Source: Telopea speciosissima
Lineage: Eukaryota; Streptophyta; Magnoliopsida; Proteales; Proteaceae
Reading direction: 5' to 3'
Assembly (NCBI RefSeq): GCF_018873765.1
Contig: NC_057926.1
Span: 53,395,378-53,459,377, forward strand
Length of the DNA: 64,000 nt
Shown: one piece after another, positions 1,545-13,207 of the stretch
How the letters are laid out: the number at the start of each line of letters is the position of its first letter
Position numbering within the stretch: position 1 is the stretch's first letter
The notes under the pieces: model-generated
Told to the model about the DNA's origin: nothing
Database searches by the model: none
Seen by the model: only the letters and a program-made list of their open reading frames with translations
Made by a program: the position numbers and the translations under genes

Positions 1545-1673
1545 TGGAAAAAATTTTACTGCTACGTCCATAGCAGGAATATTCCTGTTACAAGGTTAGC
1601 AACCAAGGAAATGGAATAATTCACTTCTCCTTTGGATTCATAAATACCTTCCTAGGTTTTAGTATTTTTTAAA
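1545..1673. mobile_element. left half of the MITE that hosts the MULE
   Basis: This half matches the complement of the intact MITE at 15,895-16,136. It shares the terminal TTTTxCTGCTAC, the CAGGAATATTCCTG-like word, the ACCAAGGAAATGGAATAATT block and the TAGGTTTTAGTATTTT block. It stops at the 10-bp duplication ATTTTTTAAA (1664-1673), where the MULE begins. The other half resumes at 12,851. Confidence 0.85.
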
Positions 1674-2174
1674 GAGATAAATACGCATACCCCCTTAAGT
1701 GGACCAAAAAGGACAGATGCACCCCTAATTTTCTGACAATGCCACCTGGACCCCTCGAAATCCCAGCTTACACCCCTAATTGACACGATAATGCCATTTT
1801 GGTCCATTCCGTTAAATGCAAACGAAAATCACTAACTGGACCACTGTGAAAAGTCGATTTTACCCTTTAATGAAATAAAGAAAATAAAACTTGAAAAACG
1901 AATTTGTAATATTTATGAAATACCCAAAATACCCTCCCTTATTTCCCTTTCATCTCTCATCTTTCCTATCTCACTTTCCCTTTCACGATCAGCTGAAACC
2001 TAACTGGAAAGCTCTTCTCTGCAACTCGCCATTGTTCGATCGATGTTCCTTCGTTAGGGGTTTGGTTTCGAGTTCCACGGTGCTGCCACTCGACTGAGAC
2101 GAAGAACAGGGACATTCGTCTTCTCCGCCGTTCAGTGGTGCCCCCCATTCGTCTTCTCCGATCTATAAGACATT
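1674..2174 (+). repeat. left terminal inverted repeat of the MULE
   Basis: It pairs with 12,323-12,850. The first 60 bases are nearly identical to the other end. Later shared blocks include the coding-like stretch from CCTAACTGGAAAGCTC to GACATTCGTCTTCTCCG. The left copy has a ~33-bp insertion-like duplication of the CATTCGTCTTCTCCG word (about 2130-2162) that the right copy lacks. By analogy with MuDR it should contain the promoter and transcription start for the transposase. Confidence 0.88.
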
Positions 2175-3502
2175 CGGTGGAGCAACCTTGAGCTCGGCGG
2201 CGCTGCTACTCGCCGGAGTGTACCCAAGTAAGCATCTTTCTCTCCGCTTCGTCGTCTTACTCGTTCCCAACAACTGCTTCAAATCTCTCCTTTTCTCTTT
2301 CAGATTTTGACCTCCGCGAGCCTCTTTCTCAGAGAAAGAGAGAGGTACGTATTGGCTTATTCCCATTTCCTCATTGTTTCCGTTTCTTTCTTTCTTTCAT
2401 TTATCTCTGCTGCTATACTGATTTGAATGTTGATCCCGTTAGGTTATCTGCTAGATCTTACACAGATACGGCTTATTCAGCCAATGCCTGTTCTTCATAT
2501 TGTTTTATTGCATTGCTTTGATCTGTTAATTAGCCTGTAATTTTTCATGATTTGAACCTCTTTTGAAGTGCTTCTTCTCTTAATTTCTTTTGGCTTGTCT
2601 TTTGAACTGATTGCAGTCTCCAGTGGAATGAAATATCCAGCCCACTCTTTTCCAAATCATCATCCGAGAAATTTGTTGACTGTTGTAGCATTAGATATTC
2701 CCTGATATCCAAGAACCATAGCATGCCTATCCAGGAATTGAAGTTGAATCCTCCAAAACATGCTAGTATTGTGACATTGGCTTTTCCAAGTTAATTTAAC
2801 TTTACAATCTCGGTTTTGTTCAAAAGGTAATGGAATAGCTTTTCGAATGGCACCAAAATCAAGTCAACATATGGCTGTTGACTTCCAAAAAACAAAGGTT
2901 CACAAAATCATACGAGAATAAGACCAAAGTAGAAAGGGATTACCATTTCTTGGAAAACTAAAGAAAGATCTATGGTGAATGGATCAGAACATAGAACTAC
3001 ATCAAACTTGGAACAACATTTGGAGTTTTCCAAACAGAAAACTTTGCTTTGAAGAAACATTAGAACATCTTTAGAATATGAGCGAAGAAAGGATTGGAGC
3101 TTAAAGAGGTATAAGCATTAGATTGTGCTTCAATTAATCCTAACTAGAGTGAAGGTGTGCTACACATGACAATTGCAAGTTTGCTTATTTATCGGGGGGA
3201 AGTTGCCAAACTAACTGCTTAAAGTTTCATTTTTTTGCTTTACTATCCTTATTGCTATCCTTATTACTATATTACCACTCTTAAAAAAGAAGTAAATTAT
3301 CAAGTAAGAGCATGGTTAGGAAAACAATGATATAGGTTGTTATAAGCTTATTTTATAGATGATTGAATCCATGTACAAGTCTGTTATCTATTGAATCTCA
3401 CTTGCAAACCTTACTAATCTTCTAATTATTTGTACTTTGAAACTGATGAGACATGTACTGTTGTGATTATATTGCTCCTTTTGTTGTGCTGTTTTCTACA
3501 GA
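2175..3502 (+). other. spliced 5' leader of the transposase gene
   Basis: Splice signals fit an untranslated leader. A donor at 2228 (CAA/GTAAGC) pairs with an acceptor after a pyrimidine run at 2301-2303 (TTTCAG). A second strong donor follows at 2345 (GAGAG/GTACGT), and an acceptor at 3499-3501 (TTTTCTACAG) sits immediately before the first ATG at 3503. This gives a ~1.15-kb leader intron. No coding sequence was recognised inside it. Confidence 0.55.
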
Positions 3503-6500
3503 ATGGAAGTATGCACAATATGGTATCAATATGCAAATAACCACCATTCTAAAACCATAGATGTGGAAAGGTTTGGGTATTTGGACATGATAAGTGACAT
3601 CTATAATACAGTAATGACATTTATACCTAAAGGAAGGAATGTGAGATTCAATGTCAAATATAAGACACCTGGTAGTATTATAGATGAGGAAGTGATGACT
3701 GATGCTGATGTACTGAGATTGTTTACCATTATGAAGGACTCGGATTGCATAGACTTGGTCATATAAACCTGGATGTAAGTGAACCCACTGACAATGTGAC
3801 CATCAATGGCCATTCACTGAGAGTGTTGGGTGGTGATACTACTGTTACAAGACCAAGTGCATCATAGCCCTTTGTGGATCCCATTGAACATCAAATTGTA
3901 GAGTTCCAAAGGAGTGGTAGTAGTATACCAATATTGGTAGCCTTAAATGGCAGTACAGGGATGGGAAGTGACAGCCAAAGCAGCCAAAAAGTGAAACCTA
4001 CTACTACTAAGATGAGTCCTAGCAGTACTGTGAGGCATACAATACCAAGAAGTCCTCATAATGTGAGAATGCAGCCTACTTTTAGGAGTCCTCATACTCA
4101 TACAAATCAATATACTTTGAGGAGTCAGCCTAATATGAGGAGTCCTAGCAGTACTGTGAGGAGTAGCTATAATCAAAGTATTGTTCTTGAACAGAGTACA
4201 AGAACCCCTGTTGGAGTAACATTCTACAATAAGACTAAGGCAATGATGAATGCCACTGGTAAGTCATTTGGTGATGTGGGCACTTCTAGTAGAGTAGTGG
4301 GCAGTGGAGAGTTTGGTTTTGTTAGGCCTTCTACTCAAAGTAATACACGCATAGAGGATACAATTACAACTCCAATACCAACTCCAACTCCAACACATGT
4401 GCATCATGTTGATCTAATCAATGAAGAAAATTCAGATAGTGAGTCATCTGATAGTGATTTTGTGGCGGAAGAATCAGATGAACTCAGTGAGAGTTCAAGC
4501 AGTTTGGAAAGTAGTGAAAATGAATAAAATACAGTGGAAGATGAGGAGGTCAGAAAAATTAATACAGAAGATGAAGAATCAGAATGTAGATCAGATGTAG
4601 AGGGAGATCCTATTAAAGGGGGTGTTGACCAAAAGATCAATTTATGTGTTGGTCAATCATTTAGATCAGTCAAACATTTGAGGGAAGTGTTAAGGGATTA
4701 TGAAATCCAAGATGGGTTTCATACTTTGAAACAAAAAAATGAGAGGAGAAGGTTGACAGGGATATGTGAACAAAGGGGGTGTCCAAGGAGGATCCATGCT
4801 TCAGTAATTTCAGATGGGATCACTGTTGTGATCAAGTCTCTTGGTCCAGACCACATTTGCAAGGGTGGTCCAAGTAAGAAGAGCATAAATTCTGTTTGGA
4901 TAGCCAAAAAACTTGGACCTAAACTTAGAGCAGATCCTGGTTTGAGTAATGAGTCTATGTTTCAGATGCTTGATGAGCAGTATGGAGTGCATGCCCACCC
5001 AAAACAGCTTTACAGGGTAAGATCACTTGCTAGGGAAGAAAATGAAGGAACCCATGGCAACTCTTATCAGAAGTTATGTAAATATAGGGATATGGTGGTA
5101 GAAAGTAATCCTGGGACTTCATTTGGGATTCAATTTGAGAATGGGAATATCTATGGACGTATGGATGCTTATGGAGATGTGATAGTGCAGCTACAATTCA
5201 AGAGGGTGTTTGCATGTTTTGATGCATGTAAGGATGGGTTTTTAAAGGGCTGCATGCCATTCATAGGCTTGGATGGTTGCCATCTCAAAGGTCCATATGG
5301 TGGAGTTTTATTATCTGCTGTTTCAATTGATGGAAACAATGACATATTTCCCCTTGCCTGTGGTGTTGTTGAATCTGAAGGAAAAGATAGTTGGCTATTC
5401 TTCTTGTATGAATTGCGAGAGTGTATTCAGACAAACTTAGCCACTACTACAACTGGAGGATACCTATTCACTTTTATGACAGACAAACAAAAGGTATTAT
5501 AGTTGTTTACTTTACTTTGATTCTTTTTTATTATTTATATGTTATATAATCTAAGGTATTATAGCTGATTCGAATTATATGTTTGTATACTCTTATTTAG
5601 GGACTTATCGAAGCAATGGGTATAATATTTCCAGAGGCCAACCATAGGCATTGTGCTCGTCATTTATACAATAATTTCAAGTCAAAATGGGGTGGTGGAA
5701 TTGGACTGAGGTCTTACTTTTGGGCTACCAGCAAAAGTTACACCAAGTTACAGTTTGACATGGCAATGAATGGGTTGAAAACTGCACATAAACAAGCACA
5801 TGACTGGCTAATGAAGAATCCACCATCAAGTTGGGCGAGACATGCATTTGATCATAGGGCCAAGTGTGACCAAATAACCAACAACATATCAGAGTCATTC
5901 AATCAGTGGATTGGACCACTGCGAGCCAAGCCTATTGTGACTTTAATGGACCAAATCAGGCATAAGCTGATGAAAAGATTATAGTTAAGGTATGTGAATG
6001 CTTGCAAAGAACAAGGACAAGGAAGTAAACTCACTCCTAGAGGTAAGAAGAAGTTGGATGCATTACAGGAAAATGTTAGATTCTGTAGAGTGACAAGTGC
6101 AGGTGGAAATAAATTTGACGTCTTGGATGGTAGTGGTATGAGACATGTAGTGAATCTTACAGATCGTACCTGTGATTGTGGTGTATGGGAAGCTTCTGGG
6201 TTGCCTTGTAGACATGCAGGAGCATGTATACTTGATAATAGGGGAGAATTGGAGGACTACTGTGACCCGTACTTCTATTTATCCACATATATCATGGCTA
6301 ATGAGAAGATGATTCAACCATGTCCTGATATCAATAGTTTGGAAAATATTCCATTGCTGCTACCTAAGTTGAGGAGAAAATCTAGGAGACCGAAAAAATA
6401 TAGGAGGAGGGAACCTGATGAGCCAACCAAACAGTACCAGAGATCCAAATCAAATATTTGTCCTAGATGTAAAGGGGTTGGCCATAACATTAGGACTTGC

Positions 6501-6821
6501 AAAGGTGGTCCAGTTAAGGACAAATAATCTTCAGATAGGGTTGGTATGAAGGTAAGATAGTGTGATTTAATATGCTTCCAATATGTTTATATAATAAATA
6601 CAATTTTTTTCATATTTGATGTTTTCTTCATACATTTGTAGCAAAAGAGAAGGAATGACACAGATGATGATATCACCTCCTCCCAGAGGGTAACTAGATC
6701 ATCACAGAATTCATGTACAACTCAAATTGATTTAGAACAGCAAGATCATGTGATTGAAAAATTGGCAAAAAAGGCTGCCAAAGAGAGAGAAAGGAGAGCT
6801 GCCAAGAAACTCAAAGCATAA
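3503..6821 (+). pseudogene. MULE transposase (mudrA-type), broken
   Basis: Domains appear in the usual MULE order. An N-terminal PB1-like region (3503-3763) is followed by a Ser/Thr-rich and acidic linker and the MuDR N-terminal zinc-binding domain (about 4630-4860, ending DHIC). The DDE catalytic domain follows, with first Asp in FIGLDGCHLKG (~5270), second Asp in MTDKQK (~5480) and Glu in NNISESFNQW (~5890). Next come a SWIM zinc finger (CDCG...CRHA, ~6170-6215), a CCHC knuckle (CPRCKGVGHNIRTC, ~6460-6500) and a basic coiled C-terminal exon (6642-6821). An intron at 5494-5600 joins phase-0 codons within the catalytic domain. A second is likely at 6552-6641. Damage: a frameshift near 3757, then in-frame stops at 3865 (TAG), 4525 (TAA), 5982 (TAG) and 6525 (TAA). 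The catalytic residues survive, so decay is recent or purifying selection was strong until lately. The 6525 stop could instead be the true end if the last exon is not used. Confidence 0.9.
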
Positions 6822-7473
6822 GCACAACCACCCAAGTGAACTGATATTTGGTGAGTTGCAGGCCAACATAAGTGATTTTATAAATTTACATTCAATTCTT
6901 TGCCTTAGGATAGGACTGACTGACATATCTGCTTTATATGTATCAGGTGCTGCACTTGAGTTGAAGGGAGCTTGAAGGAGCAAAAGATGTACATGATGGC
7001 TTCTTGGATTGCTGGTTTGCTTTATGTTGAGGGGATGGGAGTTGGTGCTGGTTTTACAGTTGCAAAGGACATGAGTTTCTATATAGGATAAGACTCACAT
7101 AGTTCTGTTATGTAGGATGATGGGTTTGTAATTTTAAAACAATGGTTTTGTATGGCATAAGACAGTTGTATGATCCAGATGAAACAATATGTTTGAAGTG
7201 GTTGCACTTGGTCTGATGTTTTATTTTAGTTGTATGATCCAGATGAAACAGTTGATAAATGGTTTTTGTTTTATTATCATATTTTGTTCTCCTCTATGTT
7301 TTTAAATTTCAATTTAAACTTTGATCAGTTGTATTGTCCTTGTCTCCTTTGTGTTTATTATTCTGTGATGTTTGATCTTCTTAGCTTGTACTGGCAATGG
7401 TTTGAGATAGCTTGTATATATTGACTCAGTGCAAGCACAAACCAAAGCTATTAGAAAAACCTATTTCATAATA
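6822..7473. other. 3' flank of the transposase gene
   Basis: No supported gene. A 22-bp word beginning TTGTATGATCCAGATGAAAC occurs twice (about 7167 and 7231) as a direct repeat. This is probably the 3' untranslated region of the transposase gene and the boundary to the captured receptor-like-protein DNA. Confidence 0.4.
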
Positions 7474-8290
7474 ATCTGGAGTGCAGTGTGATAATAGTTC
7501 TGGAGCTGTGATTGCAATTGATCTCCACAACCCACATCCATATAATAGTTTTGATTCTTCTAACAGGTATGGGTTCTGGAACTTAAGTGGAAATATTGAT
7601 CTCGCTTTGTTAGGACTCAAGTCATTGAGGCACTTGGACCTAAGTCTCAACACATTTGATGGATTCCCAATTCCTGATTTTCTTGGTTCTTTGCAAGAAT
7701 TGCAATATCTAAACCTGTCGAATTCAGGTTTTAGTGGTGTAGTTCCTCCTAGCTTGGGAAACCTCCCTAGCTTGCAATACCGATGTTTCTTCAGGTTTCC
7801 CTCCTTTGATGGTTAATAGTCTACAGTGGGTGTCTGGTCTCAGCTCTCTGAGACATCTCGCGATGAATGGGGTGGACCTTTCGATGGTGGGATCGGATTG
7901 GGTTCCTATATTGAACAGGCTCTCATTATTGATTGAGTTACATTTATCTCCCTTTATCTTTTTGTGGCTTGACTGGTCCCATTCCATCCCTTCAGTTTGT
8001 GAATTTCACTTCACTTGCAGTGATGGACCTTAGCTTGAAGAGCTTCACTTCAAAGTTTACTGACTGGATTGTAAACATAAGCAGTCTTGTATGTTTGGAC
8101 ATAAGTGCTAACAGGTTACAAGGAAAGATTCTCCTTGGTATCTTTGGGCTTCCAAATTTGCGACATCTGAGTCTTGTAGAAAATGGTAATCTTACTGCCA
8201 GTTGTGGCAGCTACTAACGGGAAGCTGGAGAAGCATTGAGGTACTTGACTTATCTATGAACAGGCCATTTAAAGGAAAATCTTAAATTTT
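7474..8290 (+). pseudogene. captured LRR receptor-like protein fragment
   Basis: Three reading frames in succession encode the N-terminal LRR region of an EIX/Cf-type receptor-like protein. Recognisable pieces are GVQCDNSSGAVIAIDLHNPH, LSGNIDLALLGLKSLRHLDL, GVVPPSLGNLPSLQY, SGLSSLRHLAMNGVDLS and LDISANRLQGKI. Frameshifts lie near 7780 (two bases apparently lost before GATGTTTCTTC) and near 7955. The capture stops at about LDLSMNRPFKG (~8272) without the rest of the repeats, membrane segment or C-terminus. It lies inside the 11.2-kb MULE, downstream of and parallel to the transposase gene. It cannot make a functional receptor. Family knowledge gives the role (pattern recognition at the cell surface); the fragment itself shows only homology. 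Confidence 0.85.
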
Positions 8291-8581
8291 CGCTGCATAT
8301 AAGCAACTGCACGATAATTTTCGCTCCACCAAATAAAAAGGAAAAGGGAAATTTACACATACCACCCTTGAGGTTTGACGAAGGATATTTTCACCCCCCA
8401 ATTTTGGAAAATTCTTCGTACCCCCCTGAGGTTTGCAAATGGTAACAAATAAGTCCATTCCGTCAGTTCATGACTAACACTGTTAAAAATTAGACTTGAA
8501 TTGACGGAATTGCCCTTCTAAGAAGAACCCAAAAAAAAATGTGTGGACAAAATTACCCTTTTAAGGAAAAAAAAAAAAAAC

Positions 8582-8628
8582 CCTGCAACTCATCTTCCCC
8601 AATCGAATTGGGGAAGATGAGTTGCAGG
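8582..8628. repeat. left subterminal palindrome of the nested Pack-MULE
   Basis: A near-perfect hairpin of ~22-base arms (CCTGCAACTCATCTTCCCC pairing with GGGGAAGATGAGTTGCAGG) around AATCGAATT. A sister palindrome lies at 9620-9666 on the other side of the captured DNA. Confidence 0.85.
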
Positions 8629-8704
8629 TTTCAAAACCATAAGGGTTTTTCTTTTGTTTCTCCTCGGTCCCAGATCCAACAGTCTTGTTGTAGTGTTCCA
8701 TTGT

Positions 8705-8893
8705 TTACTCTTCCTCCTTGGTCCCGGATCCACCGGTCTTGTTGTTGTGCTTCCTAGCATACCTCTGGTTCCTCAAGAACTTGGGATCCATTCCTTTGGT
8801 GGATGTGTGTCTGTGCTTCTTGGGCTTCTTAATTCCATTCTTGTGAGCCTTATCTGACTGGTTATGCGCAATGTGGTTCTTCGACATCGCCAT
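8705..8893 (-). CDS. captured 60S ribosomal protein eL29 copy
   Basis: The 62-codon minus-strand frame is full length for eL29 (about 60 residues) and has no stop or frameshift. It shows the family blocks [40 protein letters not shown] and RKHNNKTGG. The ATG at 8893 was chosen because the family begins M-A-x-S-K-N-H. The reading frame also stays open for 30 codons upstream, which looks like leader. Position 3 is Met where Lys is usual, and the short tail ends TKEEE. eL29 is a small basic protein of the large cytosolic ribosomal subunit. This copy lies between the two palindromes of a Pack-MULE and is therefore a transposon-borne duplicate, not the native locus. No intron interrupts it, so it may derive from an exon or a processed copy. 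Whether it is expressed is unknown. Confidence 0.8.
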
Positions 8894-9337
8894 TTCTCTG
8901 AGATCTCTTCTGGAATTATTTGAGTTACGAGTTTGGGTTTCAAATTCAATATCAGATCTTGAGCTACGAAGTATTATAGACAAATCTCATCAAATTGAAC
9001 CTAACAGTTGGAACAAAAAGAGAAGAAAAGAATTGAGTAGACCTGATCACCGGCCTTGAGCCTCATCTCATTGCAACGAGCTGCAACTGCGAGAACTCTC
9101 AGCGGACATGGTCGAGTTTCCATAGAACAGCCTTCGCTTGTGAGAGATGAAGAACATGACTTCGAATCGCTCGGAGACGAGTCATCGTTTCCATTAATAC
9201 TGTAATTGTGAAAGGATGGATAATAGTGGAAGCAGCTACGAGAGAGGAAATAAAACAGTTAAACGGATCAAGCATTTTAAAAGAAGAACAGAGCGTGAAT
9301 TTTGAATTTGAATTTGTGCAGGATTTGAAGCAGATTA

Positions 9338-9598
9338 TCACCTTGGCATTGATGAATTTGAAGAAAGAGACGGTGATTTCGATTCAGAGGTGGTGAGAAG
9401 GAGAAGAGCTTCTGCGTCAATATTTTCAGAAACAGAAACTGGCGCCTCAACCTCCCTACTGGTTCTCCACCGGTTCGTCAAATCCAAATCCCCATCAGTC
9501 TTCACTTCGTCATTATTTTTGTGCTCTGATTCAGATCCCTTCAACTTAAGTGTTTCAAGCTCTTTGCCAGGCTTGAAGTGCTCCATTAGAAGCCATGG
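9338..9598 (-). other. exon-like ORF in the nested Pack-MULE, unrecognised
   Basis: The minus-strand frame is acidic and Ser-rich, with stretches such as KPGKELETLKLKGSESEH and DGDLDLTNRWRTSREVEAPV. It ends near a good splice donor (CCAAG/GTGATA, ~9341). It looks like a captured coding exon from a gene other than eL29. I cannot name the family. Confidence 0.35.
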
Positions 9599-9798
9599 AT
9601 GGAGCAATCGATGGGGATACCTGTAACTCATCTCCCCCAATCGATTTGGGGAAGATGAGTTGTAGGTTTTTTTTTTCCCCCTTGAAGGGGCATTTTTGTC
9701 ACTTTACCTTTTGATTTTAACAATGTTAGTCATACGCTAACAGAATGGGTTTATAGTCAAACCTCAGGGGTGGTATGTGTAAATTTCCCAAAGGAAAA

Positions 9799-10331
9799 TC
9801 TTAAATTTTGATAAATTTTCAGGCCATTTATCGCCCCCCATCAAAGAAAAGCTTATTTTGATAGCCCTATTCTGTATAATTTAACTTTCAGATATGCAAG
9901 TTACAATGGAATTTATTCTGCATAATTTTGTTTGTAGAGTTGTATCATTTCATTTGGAGAAATGAAAAATAGTTATATTTCAATAAAAACATGTATCCCA
10001 ACAGAATTTTTGTTCAATTGCAACTACATTTTTCACTCTAGTTTGTGCATATCCTTCTCTCCTTCTCTGCTTCTTCTTCTTCTTCTCTGCTCCTTCTTCT
10101 TCTTCTCTGCTCCTCAACTGTTGAGCTTGGTGCATTGCGATCTGTTGGTCCACATTGCATAAAAATCCTAACCCCTTGTCATGCTCTCCACCCATGCTAC
10201 TTCACTTGTCAAGATCATTCATTTTCTTCATCTACAAAATTAACAAAAGAAATGGCTTATGAGATAGTAATTAAACTTGGAAAGAAAATGTTGTAAACAT
10301 AAGTAATACCTCCATCTTTGTGAGATAGTAA
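9799..10331. other. MULE internal spacer
   Basis: No gene is supported. A CTT-rich low-complexity tract lies at about 10,069-10,114 (CTTCTT... with CTGCTC interruptions) and creates long but meaningless Leu/Ser or Glu/Lys frames on either strand. Confidence 0.45.
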
Positions 10332-11172
10332 TCACCAATCATCATCGTCAGACGAACTGCTCCAGCTTCCTCCAAGATGTTCGAACTGTGATAAGAGGAA
10401 GCCACCATAATAGTTTTCTTTGATGATATGGTTCAGCCGTGGATTTTGAAGAGTGTTTTGTAAATCCCATGCATCAAGGGTGGAATAGAGTAAGCATGCA
10501 GGGACTAAAGCTGGGCTAATATTATTCAGCTGGCACATGTGGAGCATCTGGCTCATCCATTCCTCGGAATGGTCATTTCGATCTTTGATCAGGTGATGTT
10601 TTGAAACAGATAACACTTCAAAGGAGGGGGTATACTGGACAGTGTGGTAAAAGTTAGGGTGGAGGATGAGAGAAGGGGGCCTATAGAACACAAGATTAAT
10701 GAACGAATCTGGATGAGAGTTGAAGTGGGGAGTAAGGAATGTTATCCAATATGTCGGAGATCCAAAGTAAGAGAGAAAAGTGCCAAAATGTTGCTGGTTT
10801 AGTTGGATAAGGCCTTCGGTGAGGCGGGCAAGGTAGTTGTATGTATCACTAATATGAAATCCAATGCTGATCCTAAAGACATAGAAGATGCCAAAATAAG
10901 CAAACATATTTCTTTTCAAAGATAAAATGCTTATCAATGATAAAGGGGGTAAGGAATGGGAAGTCTGGGTGGCAATGGAGGAAGTCATATTGGATTCCAT
11001 TTTCTTGGATAACTAAACCTAGGAGTTGATGGAAGGTAGTGAGACTATGATTTACAATGGCTCTGGTGGCAATGATATTGTTGACATCAGCCGGTACAAA
11101 GCAGTGGAGTGTGCAATATGAAGTTGGCGAGCCAGAGGATGATGGTCCTAATGGGGTGAGGGGAAAAGCCAT
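10332..11172 (-). pseudogene. unknown MULE gene, convergent with the transposase
   Basis: Two overlapping minus-strand frames (11172 down to 10873, then about 10930 down to 10332) look like one protein of ~280 residues split by a single-base indel near 10,905-10,930. I chose the ATG at 11172 (MAFPLTPLGPSSSG). The protein is rich in His, Phe and Tyr. It has segments such as YCTLHCFVPADVNNIIATRA, SPTYWITFLTPHFNSHPDSF and WMSQMLHMCQLNNISPALVP, and ends in an acidic Ser/Asp tail (SSSSDDDDW). No known domain is recognised. Its place is telling: inside the right half of the MULE, reading away from the right TIR toward the transposase, as mudrB does in maize MuDR. A spliced leader from the TIR is plausible (donor CGACT/GTAAGTG at 12,203). 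It may instead be a captured host gene. An intron rather than an indel could explain the frame change. Confidence 0.45.
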
Positions 11173-11184
11173 TGGAAAGTGCAA

Positions 11185-12322
11185 TATATATGTAGCTAAG
11201 GGTGATCTGATCTGACCTTGCTAGACAATAATACTGACCCTGTTTCTGTCAGAAGATAGGTCTCACTTGTCATCTTTCTCAATCAAAAATAGATGAAATT
11301 AAAGTCTATAATGCAATGCCAATGTGAATTGTAAGTTGTGGTCCTCACACAGATTCTTTACTTAGCAAAAACGTTGAAGTAAATCCAATGGTATTAAACA
11401 GTTGTGGTCACACAGATTCTTTACTTAGCAGTTGTGGTCCTCACACAGATTACTCTTTCATTGATCATTAGAATAATATACATCAAGGGAGAAGGACTAC
11501 AACAAAGAAACAAGTCATCCATCAAGTAAAGGAAACAAGCTATCTCAGAGCATAAAACTAAGACTCTGTTCACCAATACATAATGGGATAAATACGCACA
11601 TACACCCAATGCTAAAGGCTCATTTGCCCCCTCAATTAAGGAAGTAGTGACAACACTAAAGGTGTTCTAGAAAACAGGGAAAATTAGCAGCTTGAAGTAC
11701 GCCCATTTTTTCCCATGTTTCTTTGATAATTCCCTCCATGGAGTGTGGGTATTGGTTGGTTCTTTTCAACTTGAAGTACTATTAAGTTATGTTCTGGAAA
11801 ACAGGGAAAATTAGCTGCTTCAATCAGGGCTTTCCTAGTATGTTTCTTTGATCATTAGTTTTGTCTTCTCAACTTCAAGTATTGTTTCTTTAAAACAGGT
11901 GAATGCTAAACTACGAGAATGGCAAAGCCAATAGGGAAGGAAGGAATAAGGCAAACACTTTCCCTTTCACGAGTCATCTTTCCTATCTCACTTTCCCTTT
12001 CACGATCGACAGACTGAAACCAAACCCCTAACGAAGGAACATCGATCTATACTAACCAGATTTTAAAGAAATAAATTCATCCAGAAGATACATAATCAAA
12101 TAAAAAAATTGATGCATCGACAGAGAGAAGAATTTACAAGGAAACAGAGAAGAAGTAGAGGAACTAGAAGAAGATAAAATTAGAGAATAAGGCAAACACT
12201 TACAGTCGGAATGTCTCTGTTCTTCGTCTCCGACGAGTAGCAGAGAAGAGCATCTCCAAACCTCCACACAGATCGAACTCCGTTTTAGGGACCTCCACCA
12301 AATACGTTTTAGGGAAATCCGT
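11185..12322 (-). other. leader and repeats upstream of the convergent MULE gene
   Basis: No coding exon is supported. A word CACACAGATTCTTTACTTAGC is repeated at about 11,346 and 11,408, with a partial third copy at 11,444. About 11,670-11,790 and 11,793-11,900 are imperfect direct copies (each with ACAGGGAAAATTAGC and ATGTTTCTTTGAT). At 11,584 the sequence GGATAAATACGCACATACAC resembles the MULE end itself. At 11,958-12,050 a piece of the TIR (CTATCTCACTTTCCCTTTCACGAT onward) recurs. A strong minus-strand splice donor lies at 12,203. Confidence 0.45.
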
Positions 12323-12850
12323 GGGAATGTGTTACAGATCGGAGAAGACGAATGTCCCTGTTCTTCGTCTCAGTCGAGTAGCAGCACCGTGGAACTCAAA
12401 ACCAAACCCCTAACGAAGGAACATCGATCGAACAATGGCGAGTTGCAGAGAAGAGCTCTCCAGTTAGGTTTCAGCCGATCGTGAAAGGGAAAGTGAGATA
12501 GGAACGATGAGAGATGAAAGGGAAATAAGGGAGGGTATTTTAGGTATTTCATAAATATTACAAATGAGAGATGAAAGGGAAATACGGGAGGGTATTTTGG
12601 GTATTTCATAAATATTACAAATTCGTTTTTCAAGTTTTATTTTCTTTATTTCATTAAAGGGTAAAAATCGACTTTTCACAGTGGTCCAGTTAGTGATTTC
12701 CGTTTGCATTTAACAGAATGGACCAAAATGGCATTATCGTGTGAATTAGGGGTGTATGCTGGGATTTCGAGGGGTCCAGGTGGCATTGTCAGAAAATTAG
12801 GGGTGCATCTATCCTTTTTGGTCCACTTAGGAGGGTATGCGTATTTATCC
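12323..12850 (-). repeat. right terminal inverted repeat of the MULE
   Basis: This is the complement of the left end. It carries an extra tandem duplication of a ~57-bp unit (about 12,529-12,622; unit starts GGGAGGGTATTTT and includes CATAAATATTACAAATGAGA) that the left TIR lacks. It ends GGTATGCGTATTTATCC followed by the target duplicate ATTTTTTAAA. Confidence 0.88.
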
Positions 12851-12908
12851 ATTTTTTAAAATACCTCTTAAGATCCCATTTCCTTGACTGCCAGCCTTGC
12901 TACAATTC
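12851..12908. mobile_element. right half of the MITE that hosts the MULE
   Basis: It starts with the second copy of the 10-bp duplication and continues with AAAATACCTCTTAAGATCCC, ATTTCCTTGACTGCCAGCC and TTGCTACAATTCC. These match the complement of 15,905-15,990 in the intact MITE. The extreme right terminus is lost after about 12,908. Confidence 0.82.
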
Positions 12909-13020
12909 CAATCATTAAATTTGATTATGTGGCAACAATAATTTATGGGAAATCCAAGGAAGTGCATGCCAATACATGGACGATTGTAAAATTACAATTT
13001 ATATAAGGTGCCAATGCATG

Positions 13021-13199
13021 GGATCTTTATCACCTCCAGTTTGCTGACCGGCCCAGTTCCCCAGTTTCTCTAACAAAGGGGGACTGAAATGACCTCTCTA
13101 CCCATGCCCAAACACCCTGCCCGGGTGGGGTCCACCATCCCCCTATTAGAGGAACTGGGGAACTGAGCCGGTCAGCAAACTGGAGGTGATAATTTTCCC
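13021..13199. mobile_element. MITE with 8-bp target duplication
   Basis: A nearly perfect inverted repeat. The left arm TTATCACCTCCAGTTTGCTG mirrors the right arm CAGCAAACTGGAGGTGATAA and pairing continues through CCGGCCCAGTTCCCCAGT. It is flanked by AATGCATG on both sides (13013-13020, 13200-13207). An 8-9-bp duplication with long arms suggests a Mutator- or hAT-derived MITE. A second copy is at 666-833. Confidence 0.85.
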
Positions 13200-13207
13200 A
13201 ATGCATG

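What the first reader, a model, noticed from the sequence alone, without database searches (positions are those of the whole stretch)
10332..12850. A second, unrecognised gene in the MULE, convergent with the transposase like mudrB
In maize MuDR two genes start in opposite TIRs and converge; mudrB has not been found outside Zea and close relatives. Here a ~280-residue minus-strand protein of no known family, with an acidic Ser/Asp tail, occupies the mudrB position, and a splice donor sits just inside the right TIR. It could be a new MULE accessory gene (integration helper or anti-silencing factor, as VANC is for VANDAL elements). It could also be a captured host gene. This is my best candidate for an undescribed system.
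Basis: partly seen in the sequence, partly recalled or inferred. Interest (0 to 1): 0.75.

Follow-up and report, generated by a model that had tools for sequence, protein, structure and literature searches.

The report
Plant jumping gene carrying virus gene
A plant "jumping gene" has picked up a piece of an ancient plant virus gene and copied it around the genome, but the piece appears to be a decaying passenger rather than a working part of the jumping gene.

Summary
A minus-strand ORF (window 10332-11174, split into two frames here) lies convergent to a MuDR-type transposase inside one element (1674-12850) with long TIRs and a target-site duplication. The searches found eleven copies of the ORF in this 823-Mb plant genome, the window included; nine have the transposase.

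Its protein is homologous to the domain that follows RNase H in endogenous plant pararetroviruses (Caulimoviridae) of the same genome: 14 of 14 fetched distant relatives have RT-RNase H directly upstream. In a tree the MULE copies form one clade beside viral copies.

Copy K is 2.9 kb, with TIRs at both ends, no transposase, and the viral piece between: a Pack-MULE. Three siblings with transposase and TIRs lack the ORF. The nine two-gene copies keep a remnant of the Pack-MULE's other end. So a Pack-MULE took up the viral piece, then fused with an autonomous MULE (inferred).

The transposase shows purifying selection on internal branches; the ORF does not measurably, and 0 of 11 copies has an intact frame from its ATG to its stop. 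Absence of shared stop codons is a weak hint of past use. Capture by MULEs is known; the viral donor and the two-gene fusion make a new variant.

The parts
1664..1673 (.). target-site duplication ATTTTTTAAA, left copy
   Evidence: sequence; matching repeat at 12851-12860
1674..2127 (+). left terminal inverted repeat of the MULE
   Evidence: self-comparison 85% over 522 nt
4528..6524 (+). MuDR-type transposase blocks (4528-5499, 5601-5981, 5985-6524); DBD_Tnp_Mut, MULE, SWIM. The frame read here has a stop at 5982-5984
   Evidence: Pfam, ORF list; matched in 9 of the 11 ORF-bearing copies
10050..10173 (-). remnant of an inverted MULE right end (the lost left end of the Pack-MULE) beside the captured segment; borders approximate
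   Evidence: matches copy K's left end in 9 of 9 two-gene copies and, in reverse, the right ends of ORF-less siblings L060 and L061; junction placed
10174..11174 (-). captured segment of about 1 kb from an endogenous caulimovirid: domain after RNase H, plus about 160 nt of 3' flank whose viral origin is not shown
10332..11174 (-). the minus-strand ORF (about 280 codons), broken by a small frame-shifting deletion in the window copy: frames 10332-11012 and 10873-11220
11175..12339 (-). spacer between ORF start and right TIR; unrelated next to the ATG between three groups of copies
12198..12203 (-). splice-donor-like motif GTAAGT inside the right TIR
   Evidence: sequence; function not tested
12340..12850 (-). 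right terminal inverted repeat
12851..12860 (.). target-site duplication ATTTTTTAAA, right copy
   Evidence: sequence

Best explanation
The second gene is a passenger of viral origin. A non-autonomous MULE (Pack-MULE) took up about 1 kb of an endogenous caulimovirid: the domain that follows RNase H, from near its start to its stop codon (origin shown by homology; the uptake itself is inferred). That Pack-MULE then inserted into, or recombined with, the 3' side of an autonomous, transposase-only MULE of the same family, making a two-gene element with convergent genes (inferred from the remnant of the Pack-MULE's other end beside the ORF and from ORF-less siblings). The fused element multiplied through the transposase and TIRs (shown: dispersed copies with different target-site duplications). 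The ORF has since drifted close to neutrally and is broken in the window copy.
For: Homology: one search lists 150 protein matches; 16 are pieces of the MULE copies and loci M and N, the other 134 are 27-41% identical. All 14 fetched loci of that second group (L025-L038) carry RT-RNase H directly upstream on the same strand; Pfam RVT_1 4e-29 and RNase H 1e-19 on L038, RNase H on L036. Locus M (L057) has MP (PF01107, 5e-7), RT-RNase H pieces and this domain in order on one strand; its piece is 62% identical to copy D's ORF. Direction: the MULE copies are set off as one clade (support 100) beside M and N. Pack-MULE: copy K is 2,867 bp with TIRs, a T-rich 11-nt flanking repeat and no transposase match; its left end (1-524 and 656-780 of the slice) matches the inverted right ends of ORF-less siblings at 87-94% (L059 only the first part). 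L059, L060 and L061 have the transposase end and right TIR but no ORF (best tblastn E 1.6). The remnant of K's left end lies beside the ORF in 9 of 9 two-gene copies (79-150 nt), and a 34-nt piece in J. Drift: ORF single omega 1.03-1.23; core internal omega 0.83 (about 0.47-1.5) against transposase internal 0.31 (about 0.17-0.57); noncoding-calibrated N/S 0.92-1.05 of neutral over 11 copies. 0 of 11 copies has an intact frame from that ATG to the stop.
Against: No stop codon or frameshift in the ORF core is shared between copies: 0 shared stops against 3.4-3.8 expected over 11 copies (Fisher, private against shared, p 0.009) and against 2.3-3.2 over the nine two-gene copies (p 0.19). For the nine two-gene copies internal omega is 0.53-0.64, below terminal 1.25-1.38; 1 is not rejected (2dlnL 1.9-2.9), and for the core 0.3 is rejected on only one of two trees. 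Copies have recombined or converted (transposase stops shared by B and C against the ORF tree), so trees are approximate. The donor virus itself was not found: the nearest viral copy is about 60% identical. In the transposase-3' tree the ORF-less siblings lie next to copy I, so ORF loss in them is not excluded. Three unrelated upstream sequences meet the ORF within about 3-11 nt of its ATG; this is unexplained.
Confidence: 0.8

Rival explanations
1. A virus-derived accessory gene that the MULE used, at least for a time, for example against host silencing, and that has since decayed in the surviving copies.
For: No stop or frameshift in the core shared among 11 copies; internal omega 0.53-0.64 below terminal 1.25-1.38 in the nine two-gene copies; the ORF start is kept although the adjoining upstream sequence differs between three groups of copies.
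Against: Internal omega is compatible with 1 in every ORF fit; over 11 copies with a noncoding yardstick missense changes look neutral; no copy is intact; D and F have lost the ATG; siblings multiplied without the ORF.
Confidence: 0.11
2. The ORF is a captured ordinary host gene, and the viruses took it from the host or from the MULE.
For: MULEs often capture host genes; an LRR fragment and a ribosomal protein L29 piece lie inside this very element.
Against: 14 of 14 fetched distant relatives lie behind RT-RNase H; viral copies are far more diverse than the MULE clade. 120 of the 150 rows were not fetched, so a non-viral gene copy among them is not excluded.
Confidence: 0.04
3. A mudrB or VANC homologue, that is, an ancestral second gene of the MULE.
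Against: Homologous to viral polyproteins; absent from three siblings; no Pfam hit. A direct comparison with mudrB or VANC sequence was not made.
Confidence: 0.02
4. A caulimovirid integrated directly into a MULE, with no Pack-MULE stage.
For: Endogenous caulimovirids often lie near transposable elements (PMC10377300 passage).
Against: Only the C-terminal domain was found; copy K is a stand-alone TIR-bounded element with the piece, and the nine two-gene copies keep part of its inverted end.
Confidence: 0.08

Closest known systems
Pack-MULEs (transduplication of gene fragments by Mutator-like elements)
   Same: TIR-bounded element without transposase that carries a piece of another gene; captured pieces are usually non-functional (PMC13317346 passages).
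   Different: The captured piece comes from an endogenous virus, and the Pack-MULE became joined to an autonomous element that then amplified with it.
Maize MuDR with mudrA and mudrB
   Different: The second gene is of viral origin, absent from three siblings, and shows no measurable selection; no evidence of a role in integration.
VANDAL/Hiun elements with VANC
   Different: VANDALs have short degenerate TIRs (PMC6446971 passage); this element has TIRs of about 500 nt and a virus-derived ORF.
Florendovirus ORF2 / C-terminal extension (Caulimoviridae)
   Same: A protein region encoded after RT-RNase H in endogenous caulimovirids, of unknown function and without known homologues (PMC4241990 passages).
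   Different: Here it sits inside a DNA transposon. Homology to published florendovirus ORF2 could not be tested; in several viral loci of this genome the domain is fused in frame to RNase H, and one Amborella virus in that paper has a single ORF.

Membership tests
Mutator-like element (MULE) | MuDR-type transposase | tested here: met
   Pfam DBD_Tnp_Mut 1.4e-13, MULE 3.5e-8, SWIM 8.7e-8
Mutator-like element (MULE) | TIRs and 8-11 bp target-site duplication | tested here: met
   TIRs 85% over 522 nt; exact 10-nt repeat at the window element; exact repeats of 8-10 nt at B, C, D, E, F and I, none of 7 or more at G; H and J not tested
MuDR two-gene type (mudrB) | second gene convergent with the transposase | tested here: met
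   ORF orientation and position
MuDR two-gene type (mudrB) | second gene homologous to mudrB | not tested
   no mudrB sequence was compared; the ORF has viral homologues
VANDAL with VANC | short degenerate TIRs | tested here: not met
   TIRs of 454 and 511 nt
Pack-MULE (copy K) | TIRs and target-site duplication around a captured piece, no transposase | tested here: met
   2,867 bp, TIRs, 11-nt CTTTTTTTTTT repeat (low complexity, weak as a TSD), no transposase match
Caulimoviridae (donor) | MP, RT and RNase H in polyprotein order | tested here: met
   MP PF01107 in L057, RVT_1 and RNase H in L038, RNase H in L036; order in L057 by tblastn
Caulimoviridae (donor) | aspartic protease and coat protein; no integrase | tested here: inconclusive
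   coat-like pieces gave no Pfam hit; no integrase between RNase H and the domain; protease not searched
Florendovirus | florendovirus-specific ORF2 downstream of RNase H | not testable with these tools

The most novel reading that the evidence does not exclude
A DNA transposon recruited a pararetroviral protein as its own second gene: the fused two-gene MULE kept the virus-derived ORF open while it spread, perhaps to counter silencing, and only the surviving copies have lost it.
Probability: 0.1. Interest if true: 0.85.

Novelty: new variant of a known kind. Interest (0 to 1): 0.45.

Why it matters
It shows a route by which virus genes enter the mobile gene pool of a plant and are multiplied by a DNA transposon, with a likely intermediate (Pack-MULE K), ORF-less relatives and the fused product in one genome. 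It gives a concrete model for how two-gene MULEs such as MuDR may arise: a Pack-MULE merging with an autonomous element. It also warns that an extra ORF in a MULE is not an accessory gene until it passes a selection test. In the listings that I searched and in the passages of four papers that I saw I met no report of a MULE carrying a caulimovirid gene; the search is not exhaustive.

Tried and rejected
Pfam on both frames and on copy D: no family. PDB by sequence with the longer window frame and with alignment A1: no match; the shorter frame was not searched (one search failed). IMG/VR viral contigs with A1: 42 pattern matches, none confirmed. TIRs around locus N: only one 35-nt pair, 71%; N is not shown to be a MULE. 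Literature for the host species: nothing on this assembly; that the genome is Telopea speciosissima is my recalled guess from size and contig number, not a result.

Considered and rejected: chance ORF (copies and viral homologues); mudrB/VANC homologue; ordinary host gene. Pairwise dN/dS of about 0.5-0.7 between groups of copies at first suggested constraint; it was not significant in the codon models nor with a noncoding yardstick. Rows left out: in the tree, 3 of 30 loci (L020, L023, L024) were dropped as overlapping pieces of copies I, G and K; codons touched by indels were dropped. M and N were left out of the codon models because dS to the MULE copies is saturated (1.4-1.9).

Full report
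What is there. The window lies in an 823-Mb plant assembly (G000, contig C11). Positions 1674-12850 are one Mutator-like element: TIRs of 454 and 511 nt (85% alike over 522 nt), flanked by the direct repeat ATTTTTTAAA (1664-1673, 12851-12860), with MuDR-type transposase blocks at 4528-6524 (the frame I read has a stop at 5982-5984). They are one ORF of about 280 codons from an ATG at 11174 to the stop at 10332; the window copy has a small frame-shifting deletion where the frames overlap, and none of the ten other copies has an indel there.

Copies. DNA and protein searches of the genome found eleven copies of the ORF, the window included (A to K), at 90-97% nucleotide identity to the window. 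Nine (A-I) also carry the transposase. For J the transposase side was not fetched and one search lists none near it; K has none in the 10 kb fetched. Exact flanking repeats of 8-10 nt, different from copy to copy, are at A, B, C, D, E, F and I; none of 7 nt or more at G; H and J were not tested. Copy counts are lower bounds because the search scores only its best candidates.

What the ORF is. The protein search returned 150 matches. Sixteen are pieces of the MULE copies and of two diverged loci, M (C6) and N (C11); the other 134 are 27-41% identical. I fetched 30 loci. In all 14 fetched loci of the distant group (L025-L038) RT-RNase H lies directly upstream on the same strand. Pieces scanned with Pfam gave RVT_1 (4e-29), RNase H (1e-19) and, in M, viral movement protein PF01107 (5e-7). 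M carries MP, a coat-like stretch without Pfam hit, RT-RNase H pieces and this domain in order on one strand. This is the layout of the Caulimoviridae. In Geering et al. 2014 (PMC4241990, passages seen) florendoviruses are described with an ORF2 after RNase H that has no homologue elsewhere, and one virus with a single ORF. The domain here fits that place, but I could not compare it with published ORF2 sequences. The domain itself has no Pfam match and no PDB match.

Direction. In a tree of 27 of the 30 loci, rooted at the midpoint, the 11 MULE copies are set off by a branch with support 100, next to M and N (95), with the other viral copies far more diverse. The piece of M is 62% identical to copy D's ORF. 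A move from virus to MULE explains this; a move the other way would need the viral lineages to descend from the shallow MULE clade. N is an isolated domain without RT nearby and without clear TIRs; I leave its nature open.

How it got in. Nine transposase relatives of 73-91% identity had no ORF match; I fetched the 3' side of three, whose transposase pieces are 77-86% identical to the window's: L059, L060 and L061. Each has the end of the transposase and a right TIR but no ORF (best tblastn E 1.6); their other ends are matched. Copy K is 2,867 bp, with a TIR at each end, a low-complexity flanking repeat and no transposase. Its left end (1-524 and 656-780) matches, in reverse, the right ends of the siblings at 87-94% (L059 only the first part); then comes the ORF block, then an upstream stretch and right TIR shared with copy I at 90%. 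That is a Pack-MULE. All nine two-gene copies keep only 79-150 nt of the inner part of K's left end beside the ORF, and J a 34-nt piece (window about 10050-10173, junction). The simplest history: a Pack-MULE took up about 1 kb of viral DNA (window about 10174-11174), then fused with a transposase-only MULE, and the fusion spread. The uptake and fusion mechanisms are inferred. In the transposase-3' tree the three ORF-less siblings form their own clade (96) next to copy I; the unrooted tree allows a single gain, but loss in the siblings is not excluded.

Is it used? Codon models: the transposase of the nine copies has omega 0.30-0.31 on internal branches (interval about 0.17-0.57; terminal 0.75) and 1 is rejected there (2dlnL 14). 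The ORF over 11 copies has single omega 1.17-1.23; for its core internal omega is 0.83 (about 0.47-1.5), terminal 1.43; 1 is not rejected and 0.3 is (2dlnL 13). For the nine two-gene copies single omega is 1.03, internal 0.53-0.64 and terminal 1.25-1.38; 1 is not rejected (2dlnL 1.9-2.9), the two-omega model is not significantly better (2dlnL 3.5), and for the core 0.3 is rejected on one of two trees. Against noncoding DNA of the same elements, N/S of private changes is 1.05 and of shared changes 0.92 of the neutral expectation (11 copies), or 1.12 and 0.65 (nine copies). Results that point the other way: no stop is shared between copies, where 3.4-3.8 are expected for 11 copies (Fisher p 0.009) and 2.3-3.2 for nine (p 0.19), and no frameshift inside the core is shared either. 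None of the 11 copies has a complete frame from that ATG to the stop: A, E, G, H, I and K have frameshifts, B, C, G, I, J and K stops, D and F lack the ATG; D and F are otherwise open. I read this as a passenger, with a weak hint that it stayed open for a while.

Unexplained. Upstream of the ATG the copies fall into three groups (A-F; G, H; I, J, K) with unrelated sequence that joins the ORF within about 3-11 nt of the ATG. Part of the I/K version matches a place elsewhere in the genome at 92% (C11:1649686), which suggests that these elements take up chromosomal pieces there. Why the joints sit at the ATG is unclear.

Known or new. Capture of gene pieces by MULEs is well known (PMC13317346, passages), and extra MULE ORFs are often assumed to come from the host (PMC6446971, passages). 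The review of endogenous caulimovirids that I saw in passages (PMC10377300) mentions proximity to transposable elements; the passages shown do not speak of capture by them. My searches (listings) showed no report of it. I file it as a new variant: a viral donor, and a Pack-MULE that merged with an autonomous MULE to make a MuDR-like two-gene layout.

Noticed in passing
window 8346-9789: A nested element with 34-nt inverted ends (97% complementary) carries a ribosomal protein L29 coding piece (Pfam PF01779, E 3e-21, minus strand 8708-8986); the aligned blocks of copy B skip it.
   Followed up: partly
window 7475-8217: Leucine-rich-repeat gene fragment inside the MULE; it lies in the aligned blocks of copies A and B and outside those of D-I.
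   Followed up: partly
window 13019-13200 and about 665-835: Two related-looking short hairpin elements (arms of 62 nt, 87% complementary, for the first; the second seen by eye), one on each side of the MULE.
   Followed up: no
G000 C89 3994-29083: Five hits of the viral domain, four of them spaced about 6.7-6.9 kb apart, as in tandem arrays of an endogenous pararetrovirus.
   Followed up: no
window 11175; copies G/H and I/J/K: Three unrelated upstream sequences are joined to the ORF within about 3-11 nt of the same ATG.
   Followed up: partly
L058:4663-5484: An isolated copy of the viral C-terminal domain (49% identical) with no RT-RNase H found in the 10 kb fetched and no clear TIRs.
   Followed up: partly
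copies B and C, transposase codons 288 and 374 of the alignment: Stop codons shared by B and C although the ORF tree does not pair them: a sign of recombination, conversion or repeated mutation.
   Followed up: no
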